Of a stretch of 59,096 bases of DNA, positions 4,161-46,764 are shown one piece after another. A model generated the notes under the pieces. It had not been told where the DNA came from. It saw only the letters and a list, made by a program, of their open reading frames with translations, and did not search any database. Position numbers and translations under genes: made by a program. Every line of letters starts with the position of its first letter. The first letter of the stretch is position 1. Source of the stretch: a virus; the IMG/VR virus record IMGVR_UViG_3300021185_003222, positions 1 through 59,096 of that record. One strand, written 5' to 3'.

Positions 4161-7100
4161 CTATTTTTTATTAGCGTCTTGAATAAGTTTTATTCTGTCT
4201 GCTTCTTTTTTAGCTTTGTTTATTCTGTAAGTTCCATATCCTAGACTTTTAAGCATTTTAACTTGCTCAGCTTTGTTAAGCTTTTTTAAGGTTTCAAAGT
4301 CAGTAGATCCAGATGCTGCTTTTACTCTATTCTTGGATTTGTTTATTTTATTATCTGCTTTTTGTTTATCAGTCATGGCAGGAGCAGTAGGCTCAGACAT
4401 TATATTCCATTTTGGCCAACCAGCCATCATAGCTATACTTTGCCATGTTTCTGTGTCCTCAGCTAAAGCTGCATCTATATTATCGTACTTTTGTAGTAGT
4501 CTATCTAAAGGAATATTAGTTGTAGCACTTATAACTTTAGCACCTGACATCGCAGCTGGGTTATCTAGGCTAAATCCTTTACTATATATTTCTTCTCTTC
4601 TTTTCTTACTATCAAAAGGATAAGCTGCTTGTTTTATTTTATTTATCTTAGAACTAAGTGGTGGTGAAAATTGTGTAAGTTTCCACGCGGCATCAACATA
4701 CTCAGGCCTATCTCTATTAGATCTTTCGTATATATCAAGCAAAAAGTTTTTAGCAACTGATATAGAAGCTCCTCCAATACCTGTACCTCTCAATAAGCCA
4801 TCTAGCATTCCATTCACTGTTCTATTTATTGCTTTTCCGTTGTTCTCAAACGTTTGATCATCATCTGCTGCTATCTTAAACAAAGCGTTTTGAAGACCAT
4901 TAAATATCATATTTTGAACAAAGCCATAGTATATTATTTTACTAACGTTTTCCTTAGCATCTCCTCTTCCATTTTTAAGATCTTGAAAAGCTCTTTTTTG
5001 TATACGAGCATATTGCATAGGTGTATTAGCAAACATAAGTATTAAACGACCAGCATCACTTGATTGCTGACTTGATATTCTACTTGGATCAGCTGATTGC
5101 TGCGATTCTTCAGATTTTTGTCTCCACTCTATTAAAGCTTGCTTTTCAGCTTCAACTAGGGTTTTACCTTCATTTTTAACTAAATCATTTATTCTGTTAC
5201 GATAAAACGTAGCACCGCCAGACGCTATAGCGAAGCTATCAGCATATTGAGTAGGTGCATAACCTTTTTGTAGTATGTACTGTATTCCTGCTTTAAACTT
5301 GTTCTTACTAGTAGAAGCTGCGTCAGCTATTTCACTTTCATTTATGTTAAGCTTAAGACCATTACGTCTATCCATTAAGTAGTCAGAGTTTAATAGTTTA
5401 GTAACGTCTTTCCAATACTGTGGTTGATTTGCTACAGCGGCACCAGCTTTAAGTGGATTATTAAAAGACCAGTTAACATAATTTATATTAGAAATCATCT
5501 GCAAAGCTGCTGATCTAATGTTAAAGAACATTATAGCCGCATTAGATCCGTTAACGTAATCTAGCATTTGATTACTTAATCTATTACCTCCAGCTAGTCT
5601 ATTTTTACCAGCTTTCATTCTAGCTAGTATGTTTTCTAAAGATTCTCTATATTTACTTCCATATATAGCTTCAAGCTTATTTAAGTTTTCTTTACTATAT
5701 ATTTGATCTACATTTGACTGCCACTCTTCTAAATACTTAGATCTTTTACCTGTGTTTATTAAATCTAACAAGTCTGTAGTTATAGTTCCTGCTAACCAAC
5801 TCTCTCCTGGTTTAGCATAACCATCACCTTTTGTAACGCTAAGTATCTGCTCTGCAAAAGTCATTAAATTTGAATCTGATTCAACAACTTTCATTAAGTC
5901 TGCTTTATCAGTTTTGCTAAGCGTTTTGTCTAGCTCTTTACCATAACCTGCTTTTTCAAACAAATAAACTCTAACAGCTTGCTCTTTAGTAAAACCTGTT
6001 TTAGCTTCTTTTCTTAAATCTTTAGGAACATTAAGCTCTTTTTTCAAAGCTTTAAAATCAGTTAATAACTGAACTCTATCTTTTGATAAATTGTCCATAG
6101 CTCTAGAATAAGGATTAATTAAATTTTCCTTGTACCAAGCCATTTGTTTGTCACCTAATTTTCCTTTTGTCAATGTTGGATATATTAAACCAACAAAATC
6201 CTCAGCAGAGTGAGGAATAAAAAATCCAAACTTACCTTTGCTAGCTCCAATAGTTTTAGCTTTGGCAGCTGAATATTCTTTGTAATACTCTATACCTGTT
6301 GATTCTTCTAGTAGCTTATTAAACTCTAAGCTTCTGTTTTCACTATTACTAGCAAATACTTGTTGTGTTTTAGATTTTATATCTAAAGGTTCTAAAGCTT
6401 CTTTAACAGCTTTAACATTAGCCATAGCGTCGTCAGCAAAGAAAAAGTCGTTGTAACCTTCAGCGGCTTTACTAACCAACCATTGCGCTTTAGCTTCACC
6501 TGTTGAATTACCTAAACCAGTTATATTTTCTAATGGTATATCTAATCCTTCAGATTTTAAAAACTCATGTATTGCTTGTTGAGATTCAGGCGCTCTTGCG
6601 GTTAATACAAATACATCGTCTGTACCTCTAGCATCTCTAATCTTTTCAGCAACCTTAAACATAGGGCCTCTCTCACCTTCTCTAACAATGTTAAAGTCAG
6701 TAAAGTCCATAACTGCTCCCTCTTCTATTAAAGACTTGCCGTCTCTTGCAAATTCCTCAGCGTTTAAGACACCTCTTTCATTTTCGTATACTTTAGTCTT
6801 AACTTTATTTACAAAGTCTTTAGGAAGAGGTTTTCCATATTCTATAGTTTCTGTATCTATTTCTATAAATTTATCTCCTAGTTCTTCTCTGTATTTCTTA
6901 ACACTTTCTTGAACAGCTTTTGATGTTTTTTCTACTATAAAACTAGGTAACGATCTTTCTTTTCTAGCTTTGTTTCTAGAAACAGCAGCTTCAGTAGAAG
7001 TTTCTGCATGAACCATAAACACTTCGTAACCTTGCTCTTTAAGTTTGTTAACTTTTTTCATAGTTGCATTATAACTAGCACCTGTCCCGTCTATAATCAT

Positions 7101-10100
7101 ACCTTCTCCAGCTTGTCTGTACTTTTCCATTTTAGCTTCAGCAGCTTTTCTACCAGCAAAACCAATTTTAGATCTTTGGCTTTTCTGCTCTTTGCTATAC
7201 ATACTTTCTGCTTCAGGCAGTCCTACTTTAGCTTTTTCAGCTTCTATAAATATATCTTGATTAACAACTTTCCAACCTTCTCTACCAAGCTCCAAACCTT
7301 TTCCAATGTTTGATTTACCAGATCCAGGTCCACCAATCATAAATATAGCTTTACGTTTAGGTGAAGGTTTTCCAGATGTGTTAGGTCTGTTATAAAATAC
7401 TAAACTTTTACTCTTGGCTAACGTGTCGTCAAAGTCAAAAACTCTTATCTTTTTAGGTTTTTTGTTAGGCTTTCTAGCTAATTCTAATGCTTTATCATTG
7501 TTTTTAGCATTATTTAAGAAATCAACATTAGTTCTAGTATTAGATTCTGAAGCTGCAAAAACAGGATCACTTTTTAAATTGTCTTTAGCTAGCTTCGGGT
7601 TAATGGCTAGCTCAGCAGATTTAGCCCAAGCTTCTCCTTCAACTTTGCCTGTTTTAAAATTATATATAGACCTCATGTTTGGATCATACATAGAAGATTC
7701 ATTGTAGTATCTAGTGCCATCAACAGGTGACAAAACCTCATAACCTGTTCTACGTAAAACACCATCCATTTTGTATGGAATTATATTAACATAAAAGTCT
7801 TCATAAGCTAATTCTAACTCTGTCTTACCTTTTTGATTTAACTCAATCTTGTTTGTACCTTCAATTGTCTTTAAATTATCTTTATTTGAGTATACTTTTA
7901 ATAAATCTAATAACATTTTTTCAGCAGACTTATTATGCTCCCATGTCAAAAGTTTTTCACTTTTACTTTTGTTATCTCTAGGATCAATGTATTTACGGCT
8001 ATTAGTTGTTATTAGTTTTTCACCTTTTAAAGGTATGTATATGCCTCTAACAGGAGCTGCTAATCTAAGAACACTTCCCATACTATTTTTTAAAGCCATC
8101 ATAGCTATACCCATTTGAGCTTCTGGTGATACACCTGACTTAGTGGTAGTTATTTCTCCATTAACGAAAGCTTGAGTTTCGCTTAATATTTGAGTTTCTA
8201 AAAACTTTCTTGCTTCTAAAGCTACTCTATCATACTCCTCAACAAGTTCTTTTACTTTTCCAGATTTATAGTCAGATAATTTAGAATTAATATTTAATCC
8301 AGCCTGTTTAATAAAGGTTTCAGAGTTATGAAAGTTGCTACCACCATATTTCTTTACTTTAAGTTTTTTATCACCCTGAGTTAATGTAGTTTTTTCTAAA
8401 TTAATTCCATATTTATTTATAACACTATTTAATCCAGCTCTCCAATTAGCAGTACCTCCCCAATAAACATGTCTTTTACCTCCTATAGTCGATGAGTTTG
8501 TGTATTGTTCATTAAGAGAAGATAAAACTTCTGCTGCTTTTAGCTTGTCAGTAGAGTTTTCCATGTAGTCACTCCAAGCTGCTTCATCTCTTAATCTTCT
8601 AGCTTTTTGAACATCTGGATCTGTAGACACTTCTTGTAACTCACCTCTTTTTAAACCTAAATAATCTTCGTTTATTCTTTCAAAATCACCTTCTATTATT
8701 TCTTTAGTGTGATCTTTTAAAAACTTTTCAATATCTACCTTGCTTATTTCTTCATATTTTTTTATATTATATTCCACACTAGCCTCTGCTTTTTTAAGGC
8801 CCTTTGCTAAAGCATCTATTATATCGTTTTTATCTTTAGTAGTGTAGAAATCATCAAATAAGTATTTTTTAACAACGCTTCTGATTTGTGTTCTATCTGG
8901 AACACCAGCGTAGTTAACTTTAAAATCTTGAGCTATATCAGATAATTTATTTTCTAAAAAGTCTTTTTGTTTAGGTATATCAAAGTCTCTTAAAGCAGTT
9001 TGAGATGCAGAATAAATGTTTTTAGCTGATCTAAGATCGTTAACTTGATTAGACAAGCCTAGCTCTTGAGCTCTTTCAGAAAATGCTTTTAAAGTCATTT
9101 CTTTAGTTATATATCTTAAAACACCTTTTAACGTTTGAGCTTCACTTTCTCTTTGTGTAAACGAAGCTTCTTTTCTCTTGTCTTTAATACCTATTTTACC
9201 TAAAAAATATTCTTCTGAAAATTTGTTTTTTGTCCATAAAAAATCATTACCAATACGTTGATCTGTTTTAGTAAAGAAGTCTCTTTTTATGTTTCTGTCA
9301 ATACCTGTTGGCTGGTTAATTTTTCCAGACGATGCAGATATATTAATATAGTTATCTCCTTTTCTAGACTTTGGATGTTTAATTCTTTCTGTTGTATTAC
9401 CTTTGTAAGCATATTCTCTCAATACAGGAACATTGTTGTAAGGCATTAAATCAATAGCTTTTGCAAAATTAGGATTTAAACCTCCACCCATCATCCATCG
9501 TTGCGCAACTTTTGCTTCAGGTATATTTAAGTTTTTCTTTGGATCAGTTATAGCTTCCTCTCTAAAACTAAAGTTAGGATCTTTTAATACTTCTTTACCA
9601 AAGGTTGTTAAATCATTTTTCAACTCTTTAGCTGCTATATATGGAATATCTTTTATTAAATTATCAAAAGTACCTAAATAAGCGTCCATTGTTTCAGGAA
9701 CAAAAGGATATTTACCTTCGTCAGTTATTTTTTTCTTTATCTCGTTAGATAGCTCAAACCTGCTTTCTGGACTTAACATACCTAAAGAGTTAGTTCTACC
9801 AGCTCCAAAAGGTTCAGCAGATCTTTCAACTCTTAATGATAATTCAGCTTGACCTTCTCCTCTACCTGCTTTGTCTGATAAAGCTTTCTTTTCGTAAGCT
9901 TTAAAAACATCTAATTTCTTTTTGTTTAGGTTTAATGGATTAAATATCCAACCAGCTAAACCACCTTTTTCACCTTTTATATTTTGAGGATCCCAACTTC
10001 TAACTACATCGTTAATTTTATCTCTTACGTCTAATATGAATTGATCTTTACTAAACGCTTCACCTTGTATTATAATCTTATCACCACTGATTTTCATTTT

Positions 10101-13100
10101 ATCTTTACCAGTGCCTTCTATAATCATAGCGTCAAACTTACCGCTATTAACTAGTTTAACGCCATCCTTAACTCTACCAGCGTCCCACTCTTCTTTTGTT
10201 AACTCAATGTTATTATTCTTGTCTCTTGTTATTTTTAAAGCTTTATCAACATCTTCATTAAAAGATCTTTGTTCTGTTTTAGATTTAAAATAATTAGGAA
10301 CTTCAACATCTGTTTGTTTCTCAGACTCTTTACTAAAAAGATCTAATAAACCTTGATCTATTTTTTTATTTTTAGCTTGATTAAAAAATCTGTTTACAAC
10401 TCTGCCAATGTCTTCTCCAGTTGATAAACCTAGTTCTTTATTAAATATATTAGAAATTCTTTCTTTAACTCCTTTTATTTGTTTTACTTGATTTAGTTTA
10501 AGAGCATCTAGAAATATATTTAATTTTTCCTCGTACAAAGCATCTATAGATTTATCCTTACTATATTGATCTGTAAATCTTTTGTTTATAAGCTTTTGAT
10601 AGTGTTCAGGTAATGAGTTAACAAAAGAGTCTATAATTTCTCTACCTTTTTCACCTTTTAATGAGTTCTTTAAAAAAGCATGAAATAATTCGTGACTAGC
10701 AGCACTAGTAGCTCCTGTTCCTATCTCTCCTCCACCGCCAAGTATTCTTTGTTTGTTTATATATATTTTATTTTCTTTAGGGCTATATAAAGCATCTGAT
10801 TTTTCGTTATTTTTAAATGTTTTCTTCCATTCATCCATAGATGGTACCTCCACAACCTCTTTAACACCAAAACTTTCAGCTATAGATTTAGTAAAATCTA
10901 AATCAGACTTGTAGTCTACAGCCTCTACCTCTTTCATTTTGCCTATATTCTCCTGTTGCTTACCTGCTAGCTCTTTTTGTTCAGCTTTTAAAGTATTTAA
11001 CTTACCATCAAGTAAGCTCTTTTCAGTCATTACCTCAGCTCTTCTTTCTACAGGTACTCCATCAGACTTAGCTGTTTCATTATCAAGCTTTATTTGTTCA
11101 ATTTGATTCTCTACGGTAGCTATCTCCTTAGCCACTTCAAATTCTTTTTGTCTATCTTCTATAAAGCTTTTTTTAATATTAGGATCAGATATTTTTCTAG
11201 CCTGCATGCCAGTTACTTGACCTTGATTAACTAGAGCATTTAGTTGATTAAATTGAAAGCTTTTTGGATCTATACCCATCGCATCGGCGATAATTAAAGA
11301 TGTATTTCTATTTGTGTTGTTTTTACCTTTAATACCTTCTGTCTTTAGATTATCAAGAAGATCCATTTCTTTTAATGTCAACTTCTCATTACTAACAAGT
11401 TTTCTACCTATTATCTCAATTTGAGTTTGAGTAGATTTCATTTTGTTATCTCTTTCAGACATCCATGTTTGAGCGTCTGAAACGTCCTTGTTCATCTCAG
11501 CTATACCTTTAGCTGCTTCAAGCTCTGACAACTCCTTAGAACTTAATTCTTTGCCTTCTGTCTTTGATTTAAATGCTTTTTCTATAGTTGCATAATCATT
11601 AACTCCACTTAATCCTAATGTTTTATTAGCTTTTCTTACAGCTCCACTATTAGTTTCCATACCTTTAACTAATCTTTCTATAGATTTAACAGGTCTTCCA
11701 CCAATATGTAGTAATCCAAATTGTATTATTTCTTTAGCCCAAGCTCTACCACTAGTTAGATTTTTATATATTTCATCTAACCTATCTTTCTCTTTTGGAT
11801 CATTCCAGTCACCAACTAAAACTTCACCTGCTGATATTGCTTTTGATATTGTAGTTGGTATTGTACCAGCTACAGTTGCTCCAGCTACAGTCTTTAATCC
11901 AGGAATAGTAGAAAACGCTCTAATTATTTCCGAACCTCCACGCATATAGTTGGTTAATATTTTTTTAGATATTTTTTGAGTTATAACGTTACCTACTCCA
12001 AAAAAGAAACCATGCTCAACAGGCATTTTTTCTTCACCCATTTCCTCTAGAAAGCCATTAGCTATATTCATCTTTATCATTTCAGCAGATCCATGAGTAA
12101 TAAAATCTATAGTGCCGTTGAATACAGTTGAACCACCACCTCTAAAACTATTTTTCATTAGCTGGCCAAAAGGACCTCTTAAATATTTTAATGTAGGAGC
12201 TACGCCTGGTATTGTTTCTGCTAGTGCAAAAGCAGCTACCATCTTTAATAAACCTGGTGCTTCATCTACTAATTCTTCTCCAAAACTTTTTTCAATTACA
12301 TCATTCTTTAGAACATCTGGATCTATTTTTAAACCTGAAGCTTTTATTACAGCTCTAGTATTTTCAGCTAGCATTTCGGGATTTTTACCAGCACCTATAA
12401 AATCACCAACTTCAGACCAGTTTTCTGTACCTACAAAAGATCCTACTATTTGTGTATAATCATAGAAATTTGTTTCTTCAGCTGTCATAGCGTTAACGTT
12501 AAGCTTTAAAGCTCTATTTAAAACAGCTATATCATCTATTAAGGCATCGTGCTTTTTAGCTAAAGCTATTGAGTTACCGTCACTTCTTGTATTTTCAACC
12601 TCTGACAATATTTTTTTAAGACCTTTAGGCACAACTCCAGTTTTATTAAAATAGCTTATATACTTAGCATAATCAGCCTTAGACCTTTCAGACATGCTGA
12701 AACCGTCACCAATAGAAGAAGCTTCTAAATCACCAGACAGGTCACTCATTTCAGAGTATATACCTTTTAATTCATAAAACTTTTTTCTTCTTAGATCTTC
12801 TAAGTAATCTACAGTTGGTCTTTCTTCAAAGTTTAAAATGCTTTTAGCTTTTTCTGTAATTTCTTTATCACCTATTTTTTGTTCTTCTGTTGCTTTTGTA
12901 ATATCTATTAAAGTGCCAGTTTTATTATCATATATTTTTTCACCTAAGTTTAATTCTTTTTTTACATTTTGAAGATCTTTATCAGCTTCGTTTATAAAAG
13001 CTTCGTATTTTTTAGCTTCTTTTACATTTCCAGAATTTAAAAGTGTCTGCTGTTTAGCTCTTAAGCTATTAATAGAATTTTCAAATTTATAAACCTTAGC

Positions 13101-14258
13101 CTCGTTCTCATTTAAATTAGAGTAGAATAAAGCATTAAGCTGAGAGTCAACAAATCCTTTTTGAGCATTAGAGTCTCCATCAAATATTTTTAAATCTTTA
13201 TTAGCCTCATTAGTTGCTATAATATTCATATAAGCATCAGAAGCCTTATCATCAAAAACTTTTGAAGGATCTACTATTATGTATCCTTTTTTAGATATTT
13301 CTTCACTGTAAGCTCCAGGCATTGATAAATAAGATAAATCTTTACCGTTTACATTTCTAGGTATAACAATTAAATCACTATCAGAACCAACCGTCATGGG
13401 AGCAGAACTGTAACTAGAAGCTATATTATCAACAAAATCACTATGATTCTTAATTAATGAAGCGTCTATGTCAAGAAGTTTAGGAAGAACATCCTTAGCA
13501 TTTTCTTTGTTAACACTCTTTAATGGGTTAACACCTTTTTCTCTGTATTCTTCAGCTTTCTTGTATGACTCTTCGTTGTTTTTGTTAATATTTAGTTTAA
13601 TAGAGTTTTCAGGAACCTTGTGAGTGTAAGATTTTCTGTCTTGATAATCCACATTGGATTCTAAAACTATATCTATAGGGTTTTCTGTTACTAAGCTTTT
13701 TAAATTAGAACTAGTATTTTTATTTACAAAACCTACAAAGGTTTCATATGCTTTAGCATTTCCTTGACCTTTATTTCTATTGTATTCTGTGTTTAATCTT
13801 ATAGATTTACCTTGGCCAGTTGTTTTGTCAGTTACATATATTTGATCATACATATAACCACTTTGACCTATCTGTTCTTCAAACTCATAGTCGTCCCCAT
13901 ATTTTTCTTCTAAAACAGGTATTAAATCTTGTTCTTCAATATTATCAAAAGAGTTTAATTCTATATCTTTAAATTTTTTAATATTAGATTCTAGTTCATC
14001 TTCTTTCTTTACAGGCTTCACTTCGCTAACAAGTTCTTCAGCATCAACTATAGGTTCTTTAACTGATAAACCGTAAGTGTTTTTTATTAAATCTAGTTTG
14101 TTATCGTCGACACCTTCAGGGTCATACTTAGAGTATAAGTCATTTATTAATAAATCATAATCGTCACCATACGTTTCATTAATTAAATTAATTTTATCTT
14201 GGTCAATTTCTTGACCAGCTTTTTTTGAATAAAAATCTATTAAAAATTCATTTATCAT
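4161..14258 (-). CDS. giant multidomain (polyvalent) virion protein with metallopeptidase, HAD phosphatase and P-loop kinase motifs
   Basis: 3365 residues, the largest gene here. The N-terminus has two copies of a short helical motif (KINLINETYGDDYD and KLDLIKNTYG). Around 690-830 there are long Ala/Gly-rich hydrophobic stretches. HELFH near residue 1189 is a zinc-metallopeptidase signature. Near 2276, VFDFDDTLA is HAD motif I. It is followed near 2308 by a Walker A, GGPGSGKS, and zeta-toxin/polynucleotide-kinase-like sequence, after which the HAD resumes with LTAR (~2553) and ADD (~2608). The ~650-residue C-terminus, rich in aromatic and helical segments, resembles the end domain of large phage proteins called polyvalent proteins. 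It is last in the virion operon, after the internal proteins, so probably packaged and injected. No DxDxD RNA-polymerase motif was seen. Confidence 0.85.
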   Translation of the reverse strand: MINEFLIDFYSKKAGQEIDQDKINLINETYGDDYDLLINDLYSKYDPEGVDDNKLDLIKNTYGLSVKEPIVDAEELVSEVKPVKKEDELESNIKKFKDIELNSFDNIEEQDLIPVLEEKYGDDYEFEEQIGQSGYMYDQIYVTDKTTGQGKSIRLNTEYNRNKGQGNAKAYETFVGFVNKNTSSNLKSLVTENPIDIVLESNVDYQDRKSYTHKVPENSIKLNINKNNEESYKKAEEYREKGVNPLKSVNKENAKDVLPKLLDIDASLIKNHSDFVDNIASSYSSAPMTVGSDSDLIVIPRNVNGKDLSYLSMPGAYSEEISKKGYIIVDPSKVFDDKASDAYMNIIATNEANKDLKIFDGDSNAQKGFVDSQLNALFYSNLNENEAKVYKFENSINSLRAKQQTLLNSGNVKEAKKYEAFINEADKDLQNVKKELNLGEKIYDNKTGTLIDITKATEEQKIGDKEITEKAKSILNFEERPTVDYLEDLRRKKFYELKGIYSEMSDLSGDLEASSIGDGFSMSERSKADYAKYISYFNKTGVVPKGLKKILSEVENTRSDGNSIALAKKHDALIDDIAVLNRALKLNVNAMTAEETNFYDYTQIVGSFVGTENWSEVGDFIGAGKNPEMLAENTRAVIKASGLKIDPDVLKNDVIEKSFGEELVDEAPGLLKMVAAFALAETIPGVAPTLKYLRGPFGQLMKNSFRGGGSTVFNGTIDFITHGSAEMIKMNIANGFLEEMGEEKMPVEHGFFFGVGNVITQKISKKILTNYMRGGSEIIRAFSTIPGLKTVAGATVAGTIPTTISKAISAGEVLVGDWNDPKEKDRLDEIYKNLTSGRAWAKEIIQFGLLHIGGRPVKSIERLVKGMETNSGAVRKANKTLGLSGVNDYATIEKAFKSKTEGKELSSKELSELEAAKGIAEMNKDVSDAQTWMSERDNKMKSTQTQIEIIGRKLVSNEKLTLKEMDLLDNLKTEGIKGKNNTNRNTSLIIADAMGIDPKSFQFNQLNALVNQGQVTGMQARKISDPNIKKSFIEDRQKEFEVAKEIATVENQIEQIKLDNETAKSDGVPVERRAEVMTEKSLLDGKLNTLKAEQKELAGKQQENIGKMKEVEAVDYKSDLDFTKSIAESFGVKEVVEVPSMDEWKKTFKNNEKSDALYSPKENKIYINKQRILGGGGEIGTGATSAASHELFHAFLKNSLKGEKGREIIDSFVNSLPEHYQKLINKRFTDQYSKDKSIDALYEEKLNIFLDALKLNQVKQIKGVKERISNIFNKELGLSTGEDIGRVVNRFFNQAKNKKIDQGLLDLFSKESEKQTDVEVPNYFKSKTEQRSFNEDVDKALKITRDKNNNIELTKEEWDAGRVKDGVKLVNSGKFDAMIIEGTGKDKMKISGDKIIIQGEAFSKDQFILDVRDKINDVVRSWDPQNIKGEKGGLAGWIFNPLNLNKKKLDVFKAYEKKALSDKAGRGEGQAELSLRVERSAEPFGAGRTNSLGMLSPESRFELSNEIKKKITDEGKYPFVPETMDAYLGTFDNLIKDIPYIAAKELKNDLTTFGKEVLKDPNFSFREEAITDPKKNLNIPEAKVAQRWMMGGGLNPNFAKAIDLMPYNNVPVLREYAYKGNTTERIKHPKSRKGDNYINISASSGKINQPTGIDRNIKRDFFTKTDQRIGNDFLWTKNKFSEEYFLGKIGIKDKRKEASFTQRESEAQTLKGVLRYITKEMTLKAFSERAQELGLSNQVNDLRSAKNIYSASQTALRDFDIPKQKDFLENKLSDIAQDFKVNYAGVPDRTQIRSVVKKYLFDDFYTTKDKNDIIDALAKGLKKAEASVEYNIKKYEEISKVDIEKFLKDHTKEIIEGDFERINEDYLGLKRGELQEVSTDPDVQKARRLRDEAAWSDYMENSTDKLKAAEVLSSLNEQYTNSSTIGGKRHVYWGGTANWRAGLNSVINKYGINLEKTTLTQGDKKLKVKKYGGSNFHNSETFIKQAGLNINSKLSDYKSGKVKELVEEYDRVALEARKFLETQILSETQAFVNGEITTTKSGVSPEAQMGIAMMALKNSMGSVLRLAAPVRGIYIPLKGEKLITTNSRKYIDPRDNKSKSEKLLTWEHNKSAEKMLLDLLKVYSNKDNLKTIEGTNKIELNQKGKTELELAYEDFYVNIIPYKMDGVLRRTGYEVLSPVDGTRYYNESSMYDPNMRSIYNFKTGKVEGEAWAKSAELAINPKLAKDNLKSDPVFAASESNTRTNVDFLNNAKNNDKALELARKPNKKPKKIRVFDFDDTLAKSKSLVFYNRPNTSGKPSPKRKAIFMIGGPGSGKSNIGKGLELGREGWKVVNQDIFIEAEKAKVGLPEAESMYSKEQKSQRSKIGFAGRKAAEAKMEKYRQAGEGMIIDGTGASYNATMKKVNKLKEQGYEVFMVHAETSTEAAVSRNKARKERSLPSFIVEKTSKAVQESVKKYREELGDKFIEIDTETIEYGKPLPKDFVNKVKTKVYENERGVLNAEEFARDGKSLIEEGAVMDFTDFNIVREGERGPMFKVAEKIRDARGTDDVFVLTARAPESQQAIHEFLKSEGLDIPLENITGLGNSTGEAKAQWLVSKAAEGYNDFFFADDAMANVKAVKEALEPLDIKSKTQQVFASNSENRSLEFNKLLEESTGIEYYKEYSAAKAKTIGASKGKFGFFIPHSAEDFVGLIYPTLTKGKLGDKQMAWYKENLINPYSRAMDNLSKDRVQLLTDFKALKKELNVPKDLRKEAKTGFTKEQAVRVYLFEKAGYGKELDKTLSKTDKADLMKVVESDSNLMTFAEQILSVTKGDGYAKPGESWLAGTITTDLLDLINTGKRSKYLEEWQSNVDQIYSKENLNKLEAIYGSKYRESLENILARMKAGKNRLAGGNRLSNQMLDYVNGSNAAIMFFNIRSAALQMISNINYVNWSFNNPLKAGAAVANQPQYWKDVTKLLNSDYLMDRRNGLKLNINESEIADAASTSKNKFKAGIQYILQKGYAPTQYADSFAIASGGATFYRNRINDLVKNEGKTLVEAEKQALIEWRQKSEESQQSADPSRISSQQSSDAGRLILMFANTPMQYARIQKRAFQDLKNGRGDAKENVSKIIYYGFVQNMIFNGLQNALFKIAADDDQTFENNGKAINRTVNGMLDGLLRGTGIGGASISVAKNFLLDIYERSNRDRPEYVDAAWKLTQFSPPLSSKINKIKQAAYPFDSKKRREEIYSKGFSLDNPAAMSGAKVISATTNIPLDRLLQKYDNIDAALAEDTETWQSIAMMAGWPKWNIMSEPTAPAMTDKQKADNKINKSKNRVKAASGSTDFETLKKLNKAEQVKMLKSLGYGTYRINKAKKEADRIKLIQDANKK

Positions 14259-41552: not shown

Positions 41553-41813
41553 TTAAATTATTACAACAATGTCTGTTTCTTTTATTACTTTGTATTTTTC
41601 TTTATTTATTTCAATATTAAACCCAGCTGCTTTGTCATAATAAACTTCATCATCTTTGTTTAATAATTTAACATCAGAGCCAGGTTCTACAACCTTAGCT
41701 CTTCTGTATCTAATATCTTCTCTTTGCTTCTCAGCCAAGATCAAACCTCCTTTTGTAGTCATATCAGTTTCTTTGATAGGATCTATAACTATATACTTAC
41801 CTACTGCTTTCAT
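41553..41813 (-). CDS. groS: phage GroES co-chaperonin
   Basis: 86 residues, slightly shorter than the ~95 of bacterial GroES. YIVIDPIKETDMTTKGGLIL gives the first strand and a shortened mobile loop, and YKVIKETDIVVII is the closing strand. It overlaps the GroEL start region (ATGA-type, 4 bases) and is transcribed after it, the reverse of the usual bacterial groES-groEL order. It caps the GroEL ring. Confidence 0.8.
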   Translation of the reverse strand: MKAVGKYIVIDPIKETDMTTKGGLILAEKQREDIRYRRAKVVEPGSDVKLLNKDDEVYYDKAAGFNIEINKEKYKVIKETDIVVII

Positions 41814-43354
41814 GCTCTAATGTTGTTAATAACACAATCAGTTGACAGTATAGTTGTAGCTACTGAAGCTGCATTTTGTAAAGCACTTTTTGTAACTAAC
41901 ATTGGGTCTATTATACCAGCCTTTATCATATCTACAGGTTCACCTGTAACTACGTTAATACCTTCTCCGTCACTTAGTTTTTTTAACTCATCAATACCAG
42001 CATTTTTAAGTATTAATTCATAAGGTTTTCTTATTGCTGAGTACAGCACTTCTTCACCTATGCATGTTGGTTTTAAATTAAAACTAGCATTTAATAAAGC
42101 AACTCCACCACCACAAACTATTCCTTCTTTAATAGCTGCTTTTGTAGCACAAATTGCATCTTCAACTCTATCTAGTTTTTCTTTTAGTTCTATTTCAGAA
42201 TTAGCACCTACTTTAACTGTAGCTACTTTAGCTTTTAATTTTGCTAATCTTTTTTCTAATCTAACTAAAATATTAGGGTTTTTAGTTTCTTTAATTTGCT
42301 TTTCAAGTAAAACAACTGTTTCTTTAACTTTGTTGTTATTTGAAAGATCAACTTGTAATATAGTTTCTTCATTATTAGTAACGGATTTAATGCACGTGCC
42401 TAGATGTTCTTCTTGGATAATATCCATATCGTCACCAAGGTTCTCGTTAATAAGTGTAGCGCCAGTAACAGCACATAGATCGCTTAACACGTCTTTCTTG
42501 CTGATTCCATATATTGGCGCATCTACGATATTGACCTTTATATTACCCTTCTTTTTATTCATGGCCAACGCGGAAACTACTTGTGGGTCAACATCTGCAA
42601 TGATAAGAAGACTCTTACCATTTTTTATAATAAATTCAAGGATTGACTGAATCTTCCGCACGTTGGGTATTACTGATTCAACGATTAGAACCAACGGATT
42701 TTCAAGTTCAGCCGTTCCTTTTTCTAGATTGGTAATAAAATGGTTGTTCTTTAATGCTTGGTCATATTGAACACCCTCTATTAATTCTACGACAGTTTCA
42801 GGTTGTTCGTTTGTTTCCATCATAACAACACCGGTTTCGTCCACTAACCTAAATGCTTCTCCTATAACCTTGCCTAGCTTCTTATCATTATTAGCTGATA
42901 TAGTAGCTACTTGGTCTATTTTTTTTCCTTTTACTTTTTTGCTATTTTTAGCTAAATACTTTACAACGTTTTCGACGCCAGAATTTATACCATTTCTCAT
43001 GGTTCTTTGATCATCTAATAACGAATGTTCTGTAGCTTGGTCTAAAATAGCTTTTGCTAACACTGTTGCTGTAGTTGTACCGTCACCAGCATCTGATACT
43101 GTACGTTGCGCAGCTTGTTTAATAAGTGTAGCTCCAATATTTTCTAATGGATCTCTCAATGTGATGCTATTAGCAACTGTTACTCCATCTTTTGTTATTT
43201 GTGGTGCGCCATTGCCATCTTCTAGTATAACACATTTTCCACTTGCTCCTAGTGTTGATCCTACTGCATTAGTAAGTTTTTCAACACCAGTTAAGATCTG
43301 ACTTCTAGCAGTATCGCCAAAAGCCAGCTCTTTAACTAACTTTAATTCTTGCAT
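41810..43354 (-). CDS. groL: phage GroEL-type chaperonin
   Basis: 514 residues, full length. ATP-site residues are present: TKDGVTVAN, GDGTTTATVLA with Asp91, and RVEDAICATKAAIKEGIVCG followed by GGVALL, which keeps the catalytic Asp (Asp398 in E. coli) and the GGG motif. The C-terminus ends VINNIRA without the flexible GGM tail of bacterial GroEL. It probably folds phage structural proteins. The apical domain (~42.4-42.7 kb) is somewhat richer in G+C than the rest. Confidence 0.92.
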   Translation of the reverse strand: MQELKLVKELAFGDTARSQILTGVEKLTNAVGSTLGASGKCVILEDGNGAPQITKDGVTVANSITLRDPLENIGATLIKQAAQRTVSDAGDGTTTATVLAKAILDQATEHSLLDDQRTMRNGINSGVENVVKYLAKNSKKVKGKKIDQVATISANNDKKLGKVIGEAFRLVDETGVVMMETNEQPETVVELIEGVQYDQALKNNHFITNLEKGTAELENPLVLIVESVIPNVRKIQSILEFIIKNGKSLLIIADVDPQVVSALAMNKKKGNIKVNIVDAPIYGISKKDVLSDLCAVTGATLINENLGDDMDIIQEEHLGTCIKSVTNNEETILQVDLSNNNKVKETVVLLEKQIKETKNPNILVRLEKRLAKLKAKVATVKVGANSEIELKEKLDRVEDAICATKAAIKEGIVCGGGVALLNASFNLKPTCIGEEVLYSAIRKPYELILKNAGIDELKKLSDGEGINVVTGEPVDMIKAGIIDPMLVTKSALQNAASVATTILSTDCVINNIRA

Positions 43355-43388: not shown

Positions 43389-43679
43389 TTACTCGAAGGT
43401 TTTAACTACTTTCGGTCCTTTGGTAAACTCTAGCTTTTTAGCATAATGTTCAATAGAAGCATCTATTGCTTGTTCTGCTCCAGCTATTGTTTCTCTTCTG
43501 GTAACATCGATCCAATCTTCTGAATCGATAGATTTATATTCGGTTTGTAAAAATCCATTTGGTAATTGAACTATCCTCCAGTTTTTCTTCTGTGAAATAT
43601 GTTTCCAATAATTAATGGTTTCTTCGTTTGGTTGTGGTGCACTATTCCACGTGTTAGTACGGGTATATAAAAACGTCAT
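43389..43679 (-). CDS. hypothetical protein between fiber and GroEL genes
   Basis: 96 residues with an aromatic-rich N-terminal half (INYWKHISQKKNWRIVQLPN) and a helical C-terminal half (ETIAGAEQAIDASIEHYAKK). I recall similar small proteins in marine phages but know no function. Own short A/T-rich leaders on both sides. Confidence 0.5.
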   Translation of the reverse strand: MTFLYTRTNTWNSAPQPNEETINYWKHISQKKNWRIVQLPNGFLQTEYKSIDSEDWIDVTRRETIAGAEQAIDASIEHYAKKLEFTKGPKVVKTFE

Positions 43680-43746: not shown

Positions 43747-45348
43747 TTATCCTGCAGTAGCGTAGTCATTATAAGCGTAAGCCATTAAACCAGGTCCTGC
43801 AGCGACAAACTCGTATAGTTGAAAATATGCTGAACCAGCTGTTCCCATAGGTGTGCTTGTTGATGAATCAGGCCAATAAACATTACTTCCAAAATTAAAA
43901 GTACCATTACTGTTATTTCTTTTTACTATAACACTGTATCTAGCACCAGATTTAACGTTGGTAGTGCAATTTATAACTATATTTCCTGACGTATGTGTCA
44001 ATAACACTTCTTGAACATTCCCATCTTTCCAATCAATAGTAAAAGTTGCATTTTTATTTGGTATACTATTTTTTATTGAGTATAATTGGTTGTTGGTAGA
44101 AAGCGGGCCAGTTAAAGCTAAACCATTTGTTTGTTCCATTGTTATAGAACTACTACCTGTGAACTTTAAGTTGTAATTACCACTTGCAAACGTTCTATTT
44201 CCAGTTGAGGTGAGATTATTAGTAGCTAAATTAGTATCATTACCGGAAGATACAGTTTGCCACGTTCCGTCTTTTCTTAAAAATGAGTTACCATGAGTAG
44301 AGCTACCTGCTAAAACTAAACCAGCAGCGTAACTGTTTCCACTACCCATAATATCATAAGTAGTGTCAGACCAGGGTACATCTACAAAAGCCTTTTCGTT
44401 GTCTAATTCTAAAGCATATTTTTTACTAGCAGTAGTGTATCCAATTTGTATACCTCCTCTTGTTCCACTAGCTGCTAAAGGTACTGAGCTACCTGAAGGA
44501 GTAGCTATCCATGATAAAGCACCTGATCCATTTGACTCAAGTATTTGGTTGGCTACGTTAGGTAAAGTTTTTGGTAATTTTAAAGTATAAGGAACAGCAG
44601 CATCATGATCTGGACCTTCTATTGTTACAGCATGAGGTGTAGTTTGATCTTTACAAAATATTTTTAATTTTCCAGCATTTGTACCATCTCCTTTTATCGA
44701 TACGGTGTTTTCTACTGATAATTCCTTAGATGAAAAAGTAAATTCGTCAGAACCACTAAGACCATTATTTAGTTTAAATTGAACATAATAATCAGATCCA
44801 ACGGGCGTAATACCAGCTTGAGTAGCCCAAGTGTTGTCACCTCTTAAAAATTGAGTTTGTTTAACTGCGACATCGCTACTTAATCCAGTGGCTGACAAAT
44901 CTATAGTTCCCATTGTGACTGCTCCAGCTGCAGTGGAGTTTTCTGTTCCTGCAGATACAAAAGTACCATTAGTATTAGTAAAGGTAGATACGCCACCACT
45001 ACTAGCCATCCACTTTGCGTTACCGTTAGAATCTTTAGTTAATACATGTCCAACTGTAGCCGCACTAATAGCAGTTAGATCATCTATGGCTTCTTGAGCA
45101 GTTGTTTTACCTGTACCACCGTTAGCTACATTTAACGTGCCTGACAGGGTTACAACGCCAACAGTGTTGTTTGAAGGTAGTAATCCAGTTGTTCCTGCTG
45201 AAAAACTAGCAACGTCTCCACTAGCGCCTGGCAAATCACCAATTGTTATTTGTTTAGTTTCTAATTCTTCTGACTCAGAGTCTGTTATCAGTAACTGATC
45301 GCCACTTACAACATTCGCCTTTATTGGATAATTATGTATTATTGCCAT
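43747..45348 (-). CDS. fiber/adhesin-type protein
   Basis: 533 residues. The N-terminus (MAIIHNYPIKANVVSGDQLL, ITDSESEELETKQITI) is an attachment-type domain shared with the 466-residue gene (MAIIYTYKTKALPSLTDLLI). The middle contains RGGIQIGYTTASKKYALELD and VDVPWSDTTYD, units also found in the 506-residue gene. The C-terminus is a Ser/Thr/Asn-rich receptor-binding-type domain. Overlaps the nucleotidyltransferase gene by 17 bases. Confidence 0.65.
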   Translation of the reverse strand: MAIIHNYPIKANVVSGDQLLITDSESEELETKQITIGDLPGASGDVASFSAGTTGLLPSNNTVGVVTLSGTLNVANGGTGKTTAQEAIDDLTAISAATVGHVLTKDSNGNAKWMASSGGVSTFTNTNGTFVSAGTENSTAAGAVTMGTIDLSATGLSSDVAVKQTQFLRGDNTWATQAGITPVGSDYYVQFKLNNGLSGSDEFTFSSKELSVENTVSIKGDGTNAGKLKIFCKDQTTPHAVTIEGPDHDAAVPYTLKLPKTLPNVANQILESNGSGALSWIATPSGSSVPLAASGTRGGIQIGYTTASKKYALELDNEKAFVDVPWSDTTYDIMGSGNSYAAGLVLAGSSTHGNSFLRKDGTWQTVSSGNDTNLATNNLTSTGNRTFASGNYNLKFTGSSSITMEQTNGLALTGPLSTNNQLYSIKNSIPNKNATFTIDWKDGNVQEVLLTHTSGNIVINCTTNVKSGARYSVIVKRNNSNGTFNFGSNVYWPDSSTSTPMGTAGSAYFQLYEFVAAGPGLMAYAYNDYATAG

Positions 45349-45772
45349 TTTTATATTTTGTTTTTTTGAATTTTTTTATCTCATTTTTGTTACCCGGATA
45401 ATACTCGTTAGTTATTAAAGAGTATTTAGGTAGATCATATGTTTCACCAAACTGTGCCCAAGTATTAGTTTTTATTTTTGATGCTAAATGAAATGTTATA
45501 TCCATAATAAACCAATTACCAAGTTCGTTTTCTGGATTATATATACCATTTACATAGCTAGTAATTTCAGCTGGCTGCAACTGGCAACATGGACATCTTT
45601 TTATTTCGTTAACATAAATACCTACGTCAATGTCAGACTTAGCAGTGAAATCACTACTAACTCTACTTCCGTATACAACTATGTCTACGTACTCTTTATT
45701 TCCTAATACTTCTAATATTCTATTTAGTAGTTTAGCTTTGTCTTGGTCGTTCCAGTCTTGTATTAACATCAT
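45332..45772 (-). CDS. MNT-type nucleotidyltransferase-fold protein inside the fiber cluster
   Basis: 146 residues. VVYGSRVSSDFTAKSDIDVG holds the Gly35-Ser36 and Asp47-x-Asp49 of the polymerase-beta superfamily, and MDITFH (Asp91) can be the third catalytic acid. A CPCC cluster at 60-63 is unusual. The family transfers NMPs to proteins, drugs or RNA, and includes minimal nucleotidyltransferases of toxin-antitoxin pairs. No HEPN partner gene lies beside it; both neighbours are fibers, overlapping it by 4 and 17 bases. Target unknown. Confidence 0.7.
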   Translation of the reverse strand: MMLIQDWNDQDKAKLLNRILEVLGNKEYVDIVVYGSRVSSDFTAKSDIDVGIYVNEIKRCPCCQLQPAEITSYVNGIYNPENELGNWFIMDITFHLASKIKTNTWAQFGETYDLPKYSLITNEYYPGNKNEIKKFKKTKYKNGNNT

Positions 45773-46764
45773 GTAGAAATCCCTGTTACAATACCGTCTT
45801 TAATAGTAAATGTTAAAGATGCGGAGTTGTTTCCATTTCTAACCGTAAAGGTAGATGTTACACCAGTTGAATTATCAGAAGAGTTGTATTTAGCTCTTAT
45901 TGTTCCTTGCCCAACACTCGTTCCATTGTCAACTGTGCATGTAGTTCCATTTATAACTATTGATGGAGATGAATCATTTGCTGGTCCTCTTAATTTTAAA
46001 GATCCAGTCCCTGCTCCTACCAAAGTGTTAGTACCATCAAATATCATAGCGTATTCTAGACCTGACATATTTTTTGTACCTATGAAACCATAAGAACTAG
46101 AATGTGCCCAAGTACCTATTTCCACACCACCATCAGGTCCTGGAAACCTTGTATTTTCACTAAAAGTTTTAGTTCCAGCTATTGTTTGATTTGTTGTTGT
46201 AAGTACCGCACCTGAAAGTGAAGTTAAATAACCAGCTCCATTATCTAACTCGCTGTTATCTGTAGGTATTGTAGCGCTACTAAAAGCGTTAGTTCCTAAA
46301 TCTTTTTTTACAACAGCTCCAGACTCTTCAAATAAAGCGCTTACTGTTTCTGACGATGCTGTTGCAATACTGCTTAATGTTAAAGTATTAACATAAGAAC
46401 CTGTTGAATAAATATCACCCCATGGTCTAGTAGAACTACCTAAATCTAATTTATTAGTATTTGTACCTATACTAGCTAAAGAAGTACCATTTACTCTAAT
46501 ACCATCATAATTATTACCATTAACATATATTTGACCATCTTCGTCAAAATACAAACCATTGCCAGTTGCATCACTTCTAATATGAAGTTTTGCGGTAGAT
46601 GCTCTAGATGCAATTGTTAATGTTGGATCACCATTAGAGTAGCTAAATATAAGTCTACCTTGTTGATCTTTGTCTGGTTCATTAATTGTAAATGCATTAC
46701 CACTATCTAAGTTTATAGTAGTACCTCCATTTATTGTTACGTCTGATAAAAAGCTTATTGCCAT
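45769..46764 (-). CDS. fiber/adhesin-type protein (331 aa)
   Basis: Beta-rich Ser/Thr/Gly/Asn sequence starting MAISFLSDVTINGGTTINLD. It contains short strand repeats (LTLSSIATASSETVSALFEE; TNQTIAGTKTFSENTRFPG) and a C-terminal strand region ending GIVTGIST. This kind of protein usually forms trimeric fibers. No chaperone or peptidase tail was seen. It is translationally coupled to the nucleotidyltransferase gene. Confidence 0.6.
   Translation of the reverse strand: MAISFLSDVTINGGTTINLDSGNAFTINEPDKDQQGRLIFSYSNGDPTLTIASRASTAKLHIRSDATGNGLYFDEDGQIYVNGNNYDGIRVNGTSLASIGTNTNKLDLGSSTRPWGDIYSTGSYVNTLTLSSIATASSETVSALFEESGAVVKKDLGTNAFSSATIPTDNSELDNGAGYLTSLSGAVLTTTNQTIAGTKTFSENTRFPGPDGGVEIGTWAHSSSYGFIGTKNMSGLEYAMIFDGTNTLVGAGTGSLKLRGPANDSSPSIVINGTTCTVDNGTSVGQGTIRAKYNSSDNSTGVTSTFTVRNGNNSASLTFTIKDGIVTGIST

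What the first reader, a model, noticed from the sequence alone, without database searches (positions are those of the whole stretch)
45332..45772. Minimal nucleotidyltransferase embedded among fiber genes
A GS-x9-DxD nucleotidyltransferase with a third acid and a CPCC cluster is translationally coupled on both sides to adhesin genes. The family can modify proteins or sugars. Co-expression with fibers suggests modification of fiber, receptor or glycan, or a cargo gene (anti-defence or toxin-antitoxin remnant) parked at a recombination hotspot.
Basis: partly seen in the sequence, partly recalled or inferred. Interest (0 to 1): 0.55.

Follow-up and report, generated by a model that had tools for sequence, protein, structure and literature searches.

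The report
Phage enzyme paired with tail-fibre domain
A small, apparently active nucleotide-transferring enzyme in a marine phage has been found only directly behind fibre genes that carry one particular small domain, and the two move together between phages, which suggests that the enzyme works on the fibre.

Summary
A 146-aa minimal nucleotidyltransferase (NT; motif GS-x10-DxD, not x9) lies at 45332-45772 (-), overlapping a fibre gene at each end. It is no chance ORF: 13 IMG/VR contigs carry relatives, with the motif, CPCC and the third acid invariant and dN/dS about 0.14.

The new result is a strict pairing. In all 14 cases (13 contigs plus the window) the fibre gene just upstream carries a 41-residue C-terminal domain ('VRN domain'). 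A scan of 2.9 million viral contigs for that domain alone returned exactly the same 13 contigs. Among 53 loci of this phage group with enough upstream sequence, the domain occurs in 13 of 13 with NT and 0 of 40 without. NT presence is patchy on a GroEL tree, and fibre end plus NT are exchanged as a block separately from GroEL.

The nearest cellular relatives are MntA-type antitoxins, but no HEPN toxin was found in any of 14 records, so it is not filed as a toxin-antitoxin member.

Best reading: an active solo MNT enzyme dedicated to a fibre, most likely nucleotidylating it. Pairing is shown; the reaction and substrate are inferred. Rivals: an anti-HEPN cargo gene, host-receptor modification, or physical linkage alone.

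The parts
45332..45772 (-). Minimal nucleotidyltransferase (NT), 146 aa
   Evidence: 13 relatives
45626..45670 (-). Catalytic motif GSRVSSDFTAKSDID (GS-x10-DxD), residues 35-49
   Evidence: same form as MntA in PMC7641770
45584..45595 (-). CPCC, residues 60-63, in a loop absent from the cellular MNTs aligned here
   Evidence: invariant in all members
45500..45502 (-). D91, candidate third metal-binding acid
   Evidence: invariant; position; role inferred
45769..46764 (-). Upstream fibre gene, 331 aa, overlaps the NT start (ATGA)
45772..45894 (-). VRN domain of that fibre, residues 291-331, directly before NT; the candidate partner or substrate
43747..45348 (-). Downstream fibre gene, 533 aa, starts 17 nt inside the NT end; present in 5 of 13 relatives and the window
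43389..43679 (-). Conserved 96-aa gene of unknown function, the fixed downstream border of the variable fibre block
41810..43354 (-). GroEL, used for the phage tree
41553..41813 (-). GroES-like ORF, 86 aa (named by its place after GroEL and by its sequence; not tested in a family search)

Best explanation
The gene encodes an active solo MNT-type nucleotidyltransferase that forms a two-gene cassette with the fibre just upstream. It is made in coupled translation with the fibre and acts on that fibre, most likely transferring AMP or another NMP from an NTP to a hydroxyl (Tyr, Ser or Thr) of the VRN domain, before or during assembly. Shown: intact and constrained active site; one-to-one occurrence with the VRN domain; exchange of the pair as a block. 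Inferred: that it is catalytic, that the fibre is the substrate, which nucleotide, which residue, and the benefit (for example altered receptor binding or a counter to receptor or antibody-like masking).
For: Pairing: the 41-residue domain HMM hits 13 of 13 NT loci at iE <= 2e-22, and its best hit in the 40 NT-less loci with at least 2.5 kb upstream is iE 3.9. A scan of viral contigs with the domain alone gave 13 contigs, identical to the 13 found with two independent NT patterns. The fibre bodies differ, so the VRN domain is the only part common to all. It is kept even where the S74-like end between it and NT is missing (window and two contigs), so the farther element pairs better (14 of 14) than the nearer one (11 of 14). 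Exchange: L004/L005 are 97% (fibre end) and 96% (NT) identical in DNA but 76% in GroEL; L001/L063 92, 91 and 76%; L005/L063 the reverse, NT 80 and GroEL 93. NT identity follows the fibre end (r 0.63, p 0.003) and not GroEL (r 0.13, p 0.12) or the 96-aa gene (r 0.12, p 0.24). NT needs at least 7 changes on the GroEL tree, 4 forced by well-supported branches. Catalysis: GS, DxD and D91 invariant. Precedent for the chemistry: MntA transfers AMPs to a tyrosine of HepT with the same GSX10DXD motif (PMC7641770). A sugar-transferase gene (PF04488) holds the same slot in 7 sister contigs, so another modifying enzyme is tolerated there.
Against: No biochemistry. The two genes touch, so physical linkage plus a recombination border at the 96-aa gene could alone explain joint exchange. 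The 13 contigs hold near-copies (four near-identical pairs), about 9 distinct genotypes. The collection scans need short exact motif matches and would miss diverged members; a broader 75-residue profile gave weak hits in NT-less loci (L081 9e-5 for the whole protein, best single domain 0.1; L039 0.003; L080 0.015). Both structure models were poor (mean pLDDT 39 and 50), so neither the fold past residue 59 nor a docking site is known. The closest cellular relatives act on HEPN toxins, not fibres.
Confidence: 0.42

Rival explanations
1. Counter-defence: a solo MntA-like enzyme that modifies and disarms host HEPN toxins during infection, carried as cargo at the fibre hotspot.
For: Best NCBIfam match is MntA antitoxin (9 of 9 members, best E 8e-6, all far under the cut-off). 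hhalign with bacterial MNTs 98% over residues 11-59; of the 10 best bacterial hits in one phylum sample, 8 have a HEPN-like neighbour, judged by eye. The one genome-contig hit is an MntA next to a HepT.
Against: It lies among late structural genes, coupled to a fibre, and is strictly paired with one fibre domain, which an anti-toxin cargo gene would not need. No member was found at any other place in a phage genome.
Confidence: 0.2
2. The enzyme modifies a host surface molecule (receptor or glycan) so that released phages or superinfecting phages do not bind; the link to the fibre domain reflects shared receptor specificity.
For: Would explain pairing with a fibre end and its joint exchange. 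Weak resemblance to aminoglycoside nucleotidyltransferases, which act on small sugars (up to 8 of 9 members, all below cut-off). A glycosyltransferase occupies the same slot in sister phages.
Against: Several fibres per genome, so one fibre end need not set receptor use. No secretion signal was looked for. No direct support for a small-molecule substrate.
Confidence: 0.18
3. Non-enzymatic or structural partner: NT folds on or caps the VRN domain as a dedicated assembly factor.
For: Strict pairing and translational coupling fit a private chaperone.
Against: Full conservation of the catalytic residues in all members.
Confidence: 0.08
4. Linkage only: NT is selfish or incidental cargo that hitch-hikes in the fibre-end recombination block.
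For: Adjacent genes share a recombination block.
Against: Purifying selection. The VRN domain persists where the intervening S74-like end is lost.
Confidence: 0.12

Closest known systems
MntA antitoxin of type VII HEPN/MNT toxin-antitoxin systems (PMC7641770)
   Same: GSX10DXD motif, size class, NTP_transf_2/Polbeta match; profile match 98% over residues 11-59
   Different: No HepT or other HEPN gene in 14 records; far below the MntA cut-off, 22.4 of 60 bits; extra CPCC loop and an unmatched C-terminal half; paired with a fibre domain instead
Aminoglycoside and lincosamide nucleotidyltransferases
   Same: Same superfamily motif; weak matches, below cut-off
   Different: Half the length (146 aa against profiles such as 249); phage late genes
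Phage Gp22 of Klebsiella phage fHe-Kpn01, a nucleotidyltransferase-like protein toxic to E. coli (PMC7291057, passages read)
   Same: Phage-encoded small protein with hG[GS], DhD and hDh patterns
   Different: Described there as resembling CCA-adding enzymes; not compared by sequence here
RlaP and other RNA-repair nucleotidyltransferases of jumbo phages (PMC7824862, passages read)
   Same: Phage-encoded Pol-beta-type NTs
   Different: Work beside RNA ligases; no RlaP match was listed among Pfam hits up to E 0.1
Virion glycosylation by phage glycosyltransferases (mycobacteriophages Che8 and Rita, as cited in PMC11256854, passages read)
   Same: Phage enzyme modifying its own virion protein
   Different: Sugar on capsid proteins, not nucleotide on a fibre

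Membership tests
NTP_transf_2 (PF01909), Pol-beta-like nucleotidyltransferase superfamily | Score over Pfam's gathering cut-off | tested here: met
   25.5 bits against 21; 9 of 9 members match at E <= 0.1
NTP_transf_2 (PF01909), Pol-beta-like nucleotidyltransferase superfamily | hG[GS] and [DE]h[DE]h motif, intact | tested here: met
   YGSRVSSDFTAKSDIDV; invariant G, S, D, D
NTP_transf_2 (PF01909), Pol-beta-like nucleotidyltransferase superfamily | Third acid on the neighbouring strand | tested here: inconclusive
   D91 invariant but not aligned to known NTs past residue 59; models poor
MntA antitoxin (type VII toxin-antitoxin) | GSX10DXD motif | tested here: met
MntA antitoxin (type VII toxin-antitoxin) | Neighbouring HEPN toxin | tested here: not met
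   PF01934, PF05168, PF08780: 0 of 14 records each; no RX4HXY in 5 neighbours tested. Most records are fragments
MntA antitoxin (type VII toxin-antitoxin) | NCBIfam equivalog cut-off | tested here: not met
   22.4 bits against 60 for the window
MntA antitoxin (type VII toxin-antitoxin) | Adenylylates a partner and neutralises it | not testable with these tools
   needs biochemistry
Aminoglycoside nucleotidyltransferase | NCBIfam subfamily cut-off | tested here: not met
   ANT_9 11.9 bits against 340
Peptidase_S74 fibre end (for the upstream fibre) | S74 domain at the C-terminus | tested here: not met
   Window fibre ends with the VRN domain. A GVM[AS] text pattern typical of S74 is found in 11 of 13 relatives; the one tested by Pfam, L004, is below cut-off at 15.9 of 22 bits

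The most novel reading that the evidence does not exclude
A two-gene system in which a phage-encoded minimal nucleotidyltransferase covalently nucleotidylates a dedicated domain of its own tail fibre, and enzyme and substrate domain travel as one exchangeable cassette: substrate-paired nucleotidylation of a virion protein by a repurposed MntA-like enzyme.
Probability: 0.35. Interest if true: 0.82.

Novelty: new variant of a known kind. Interest (0 to 1): 0.58.

Why it matters
Phage fibres decide which cell is infected, and they are thought of as finished once folded. A fibre that needs, or carries, a nucleotide added by its own enzyme would be a new layer of control over host recognition. It would also show that the MNT fold of toxin-antitoxin systems has been reused on a virion protein. 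The pairing gives a named candidate substrate of 41 residues, so the idea can be tested directly. Three literature searches found no report of a nucleotidylated phage fibre in the library held here; subscription papers are largely missing from it.

Tried and rejected
Toxin-antitoxin pair inside the phage: rejected, no HEPN family in 14 records. Association with GroEL or the 96-aa gene, suggested by the fixed order NT - 96-aa - GroEL - GroES in 8 of 13: rejected as the functional link, because NT identity does not follow either. S74-like fibre end as the partner: rejected, absent in the window and two contigs. Mutual exclusion of NT and glycosyltransferase as proof of interchangeable function: not claimed; NT in 13, glycosyltransferase in 5 and both in 0 of 53 loci is also expected by chance at these numbers. 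The Ser/Gly-tailed protein before the glycosyltransferase looked like a second private pair (5 of 5 glycosyltransferase loci with upstream sequence), but shorter relatives of 77-89 aa occur in other loci at another place, so it is only suggestive.

Dead ends: no match to NT in 50,697 phage or 72,556 plasmid records at E <= 1; no match to the upstream fibre in the phage records; PDB search with the NT profile gave only chance-level rows, best E 0.019 to an unrelated protein and 0.7 to a nucleotidyltransferase; PDB search with the VRN domain gave nothing. PHROGs gave only weak hits, best E 0.009. AlphaFold models too poor to use or search. PADLOC: weak PDC-S09 candidates, best 1.6e-5 over the motif. 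One phylum sample of 395 bacterial genomes: 71 with a match at E <= 0.01, nearly all confined to about residues 9-60.

Rows dropped: one search found 103 relatives of the 96-aa gene and kept 80; of these 27 had under 2.5 kb upstream or no anchor ORF and were left out of the 53. L006, near-identical to L005, was left out of the Mantel test.

Full report
What is there. ORF 45332-45772 on the minus strand encodes 146 residues with a Pol-beta-type nucleotidyltransferase motif: NTP_transf_2, E 1.8e-5, over the Pfam cut-off; Polbeta just under it. CPCC follows at 60-63 and an invariant Asp at 91. The upstream fibre (45769-46764) ends in an ATGA overlap with the NT start, and the downstream fibre (43747-45348) begins 17 nt inside the NT end.

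The phage. The terminase is closest to a phage from Manatee Spring (64%) and then to phages of Flavobacteriia: all 87 records with a match are Flavobacterium, Cellulophaga, Tenacibaculum, Maribacter or that one. The nearest annotated relative, MW202828, has GroEL and GroES but nothing annotated as a nucleotidyltransferase in 29000-56000, the region viewed; the NT search of all phage records found nothing.

Relatives. The search for related loci gave 12 contigs and a thirteenth came with the 96-aa gene (L063). A DNA pattern for EIKRCPCC and one for YGSRxxG...DxDVG each returned the same 13 contigs from 2.9 million. Four pairs are near-copies, so there are about 9 distinct genotypes plus the window. 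GS, DxD, CPCC and D91 are invariant in the members aligned, and the same motifs are present in all 13. dN/dS by the Nei-Gojobori method has a median of 0.14.

Neighbourhood. The 96-aa gene upstream of GroEL is the fixed border of a variable fibre block. Of 103 loci with it, 80 were kept and 53 had at least 2.5 kb upstream: NT in 13, a glycosyltransferase (Gly_transf_sug, PF04488) in 5, both in 0. NT is always directly behind a fibre (gap -4 to +1 nt, 13 of 13) and is followed by the 96-aa gene in 8 and by another fibre in 5.

The pairing. Aligning the fibres upstream of NT showed unrelated bodies but one shared stretch of 41 residues, YxSxDxxxGxTxT..VRN....S....FxIKxGxxT, here called the VRN domain. 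It is at the very C-terminus in the window and in two contigs and before an S74-like end in the other 11. Its profile hits 13 of 13 NT loci at iE <= 2e-22; the best hit in the 40 NT-less loci is 3.9 (Fisher p 1e-12, which ignores relatedness). A scan of viral contigs for the domain alone found 13 contigs, exactly those with NT. A broader 75-residue profile had weak hits in three or four NT-less loci, so remote kin of the fibre region may exist.

Exchange. On a GroEL tree of 79 rows NT needs at least 7 changes, 4 forced by well-supported branches; 14 rows carry NT, 34 do not, 7 carry the glycosyltransferase and 24 are unknown. DNA identities show swaps of fibre end plus NT: L004/L005 97 and 96% against GroEL 76%; L001/L063 92 and 91 against 76. 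Over 10 loci NT identity follows the last 230 nt of the fibre (r 0.63, p 0.003) and neither GroEL (r 0.13) nor the 96-aa gene (r 0.12). In L001/L063 the shared block runs from about 300 nt before NT to its end, that is, from about the VRN domain on.

Cellular kin. The NT profile matches bacterial MNTs at 98% (hhalign) but only over residues 11-59. The one genome-contig hit (L021, 40% over about 50 residues) is followed by a HepT-like gene, and 8 of 10 top hits from one phylum sample have a HEPN-like neighbour by eye. No HEPN family was found in the 14 phage records. It therefore resembles MntA in its active site but is not filed as MntA.

Interpretation. Shown: a conserved, selected, intact NT strictly paired with one fibre domain and moving with it. 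Inferred: catalysis, and the fibre as substrate. MntA's transfer of AMP to tyrosine with the same motif (PMC7641770; abstract and passages read) makes nucleotidylation of a hydroxyl residue of the VRN domain the leading guess. Invariant Y3, S5, T13, T15, S24 and T37 are candidates. Physical adjacency is the main caveat: two touching genes in one recombination block will co-occur. Against that, the S74-like end between them is lost in some members while the VRN domain is not.

Literature. Searches for nucleotidyltransferase with tail fibre, for AMPylation with virion or tail fibre, and for S74 with nucleotidyltransferase gave no report of such a system (listings only, with passages of PMC7824862, PMC7291057, PMC11990801 read).

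Noticed in passing
window 4161-14258 (-), kinase part about 6810-7367: A 3365-aa ORF holds a Zeta-toxin/AAA_33-type P-loop kinase domain (residues 2298-2483) beside an FDFDDTLA stretch that looks like a HAD phosphatase motif (recalled): a possible polynucleotide kinase-phosphatase inside a giant, perhaps ejected, protein.
   Followed up: no
L025, L062, L069, L096, L097, L098, L099 (just upstream of the 96-aa gene, directly or with one fibre gene between): A 144-220 aa glycosyltransferase (PF04488, over cut-off in the two tested; L062 also just over the cut-off of PF12919, a glycosyltransferase domain family) sits in the NT slot of sister phages, behind a Ser/Gly-tailed protein in all 5 with upstream sequence.
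   Followed up: partly
window 43389-43679: A 96-aa gene of unknown function, 88-96% identical among the relatives first aligned and just upstream of GroEL in the loci read gene by gene, with no Pfam match: it marks the border of the fibre hotspot.
   Followed up: partly
window 41810-43354: Phage GroEL is only 38-41% identical to its best matches in phage records, across many phage groups.
   Followed up: no
L021:4479-5684: An uncultured bacterium's MntA next to a HepT-like gene, followed by a second MNT-type gene.
   Followed up: no
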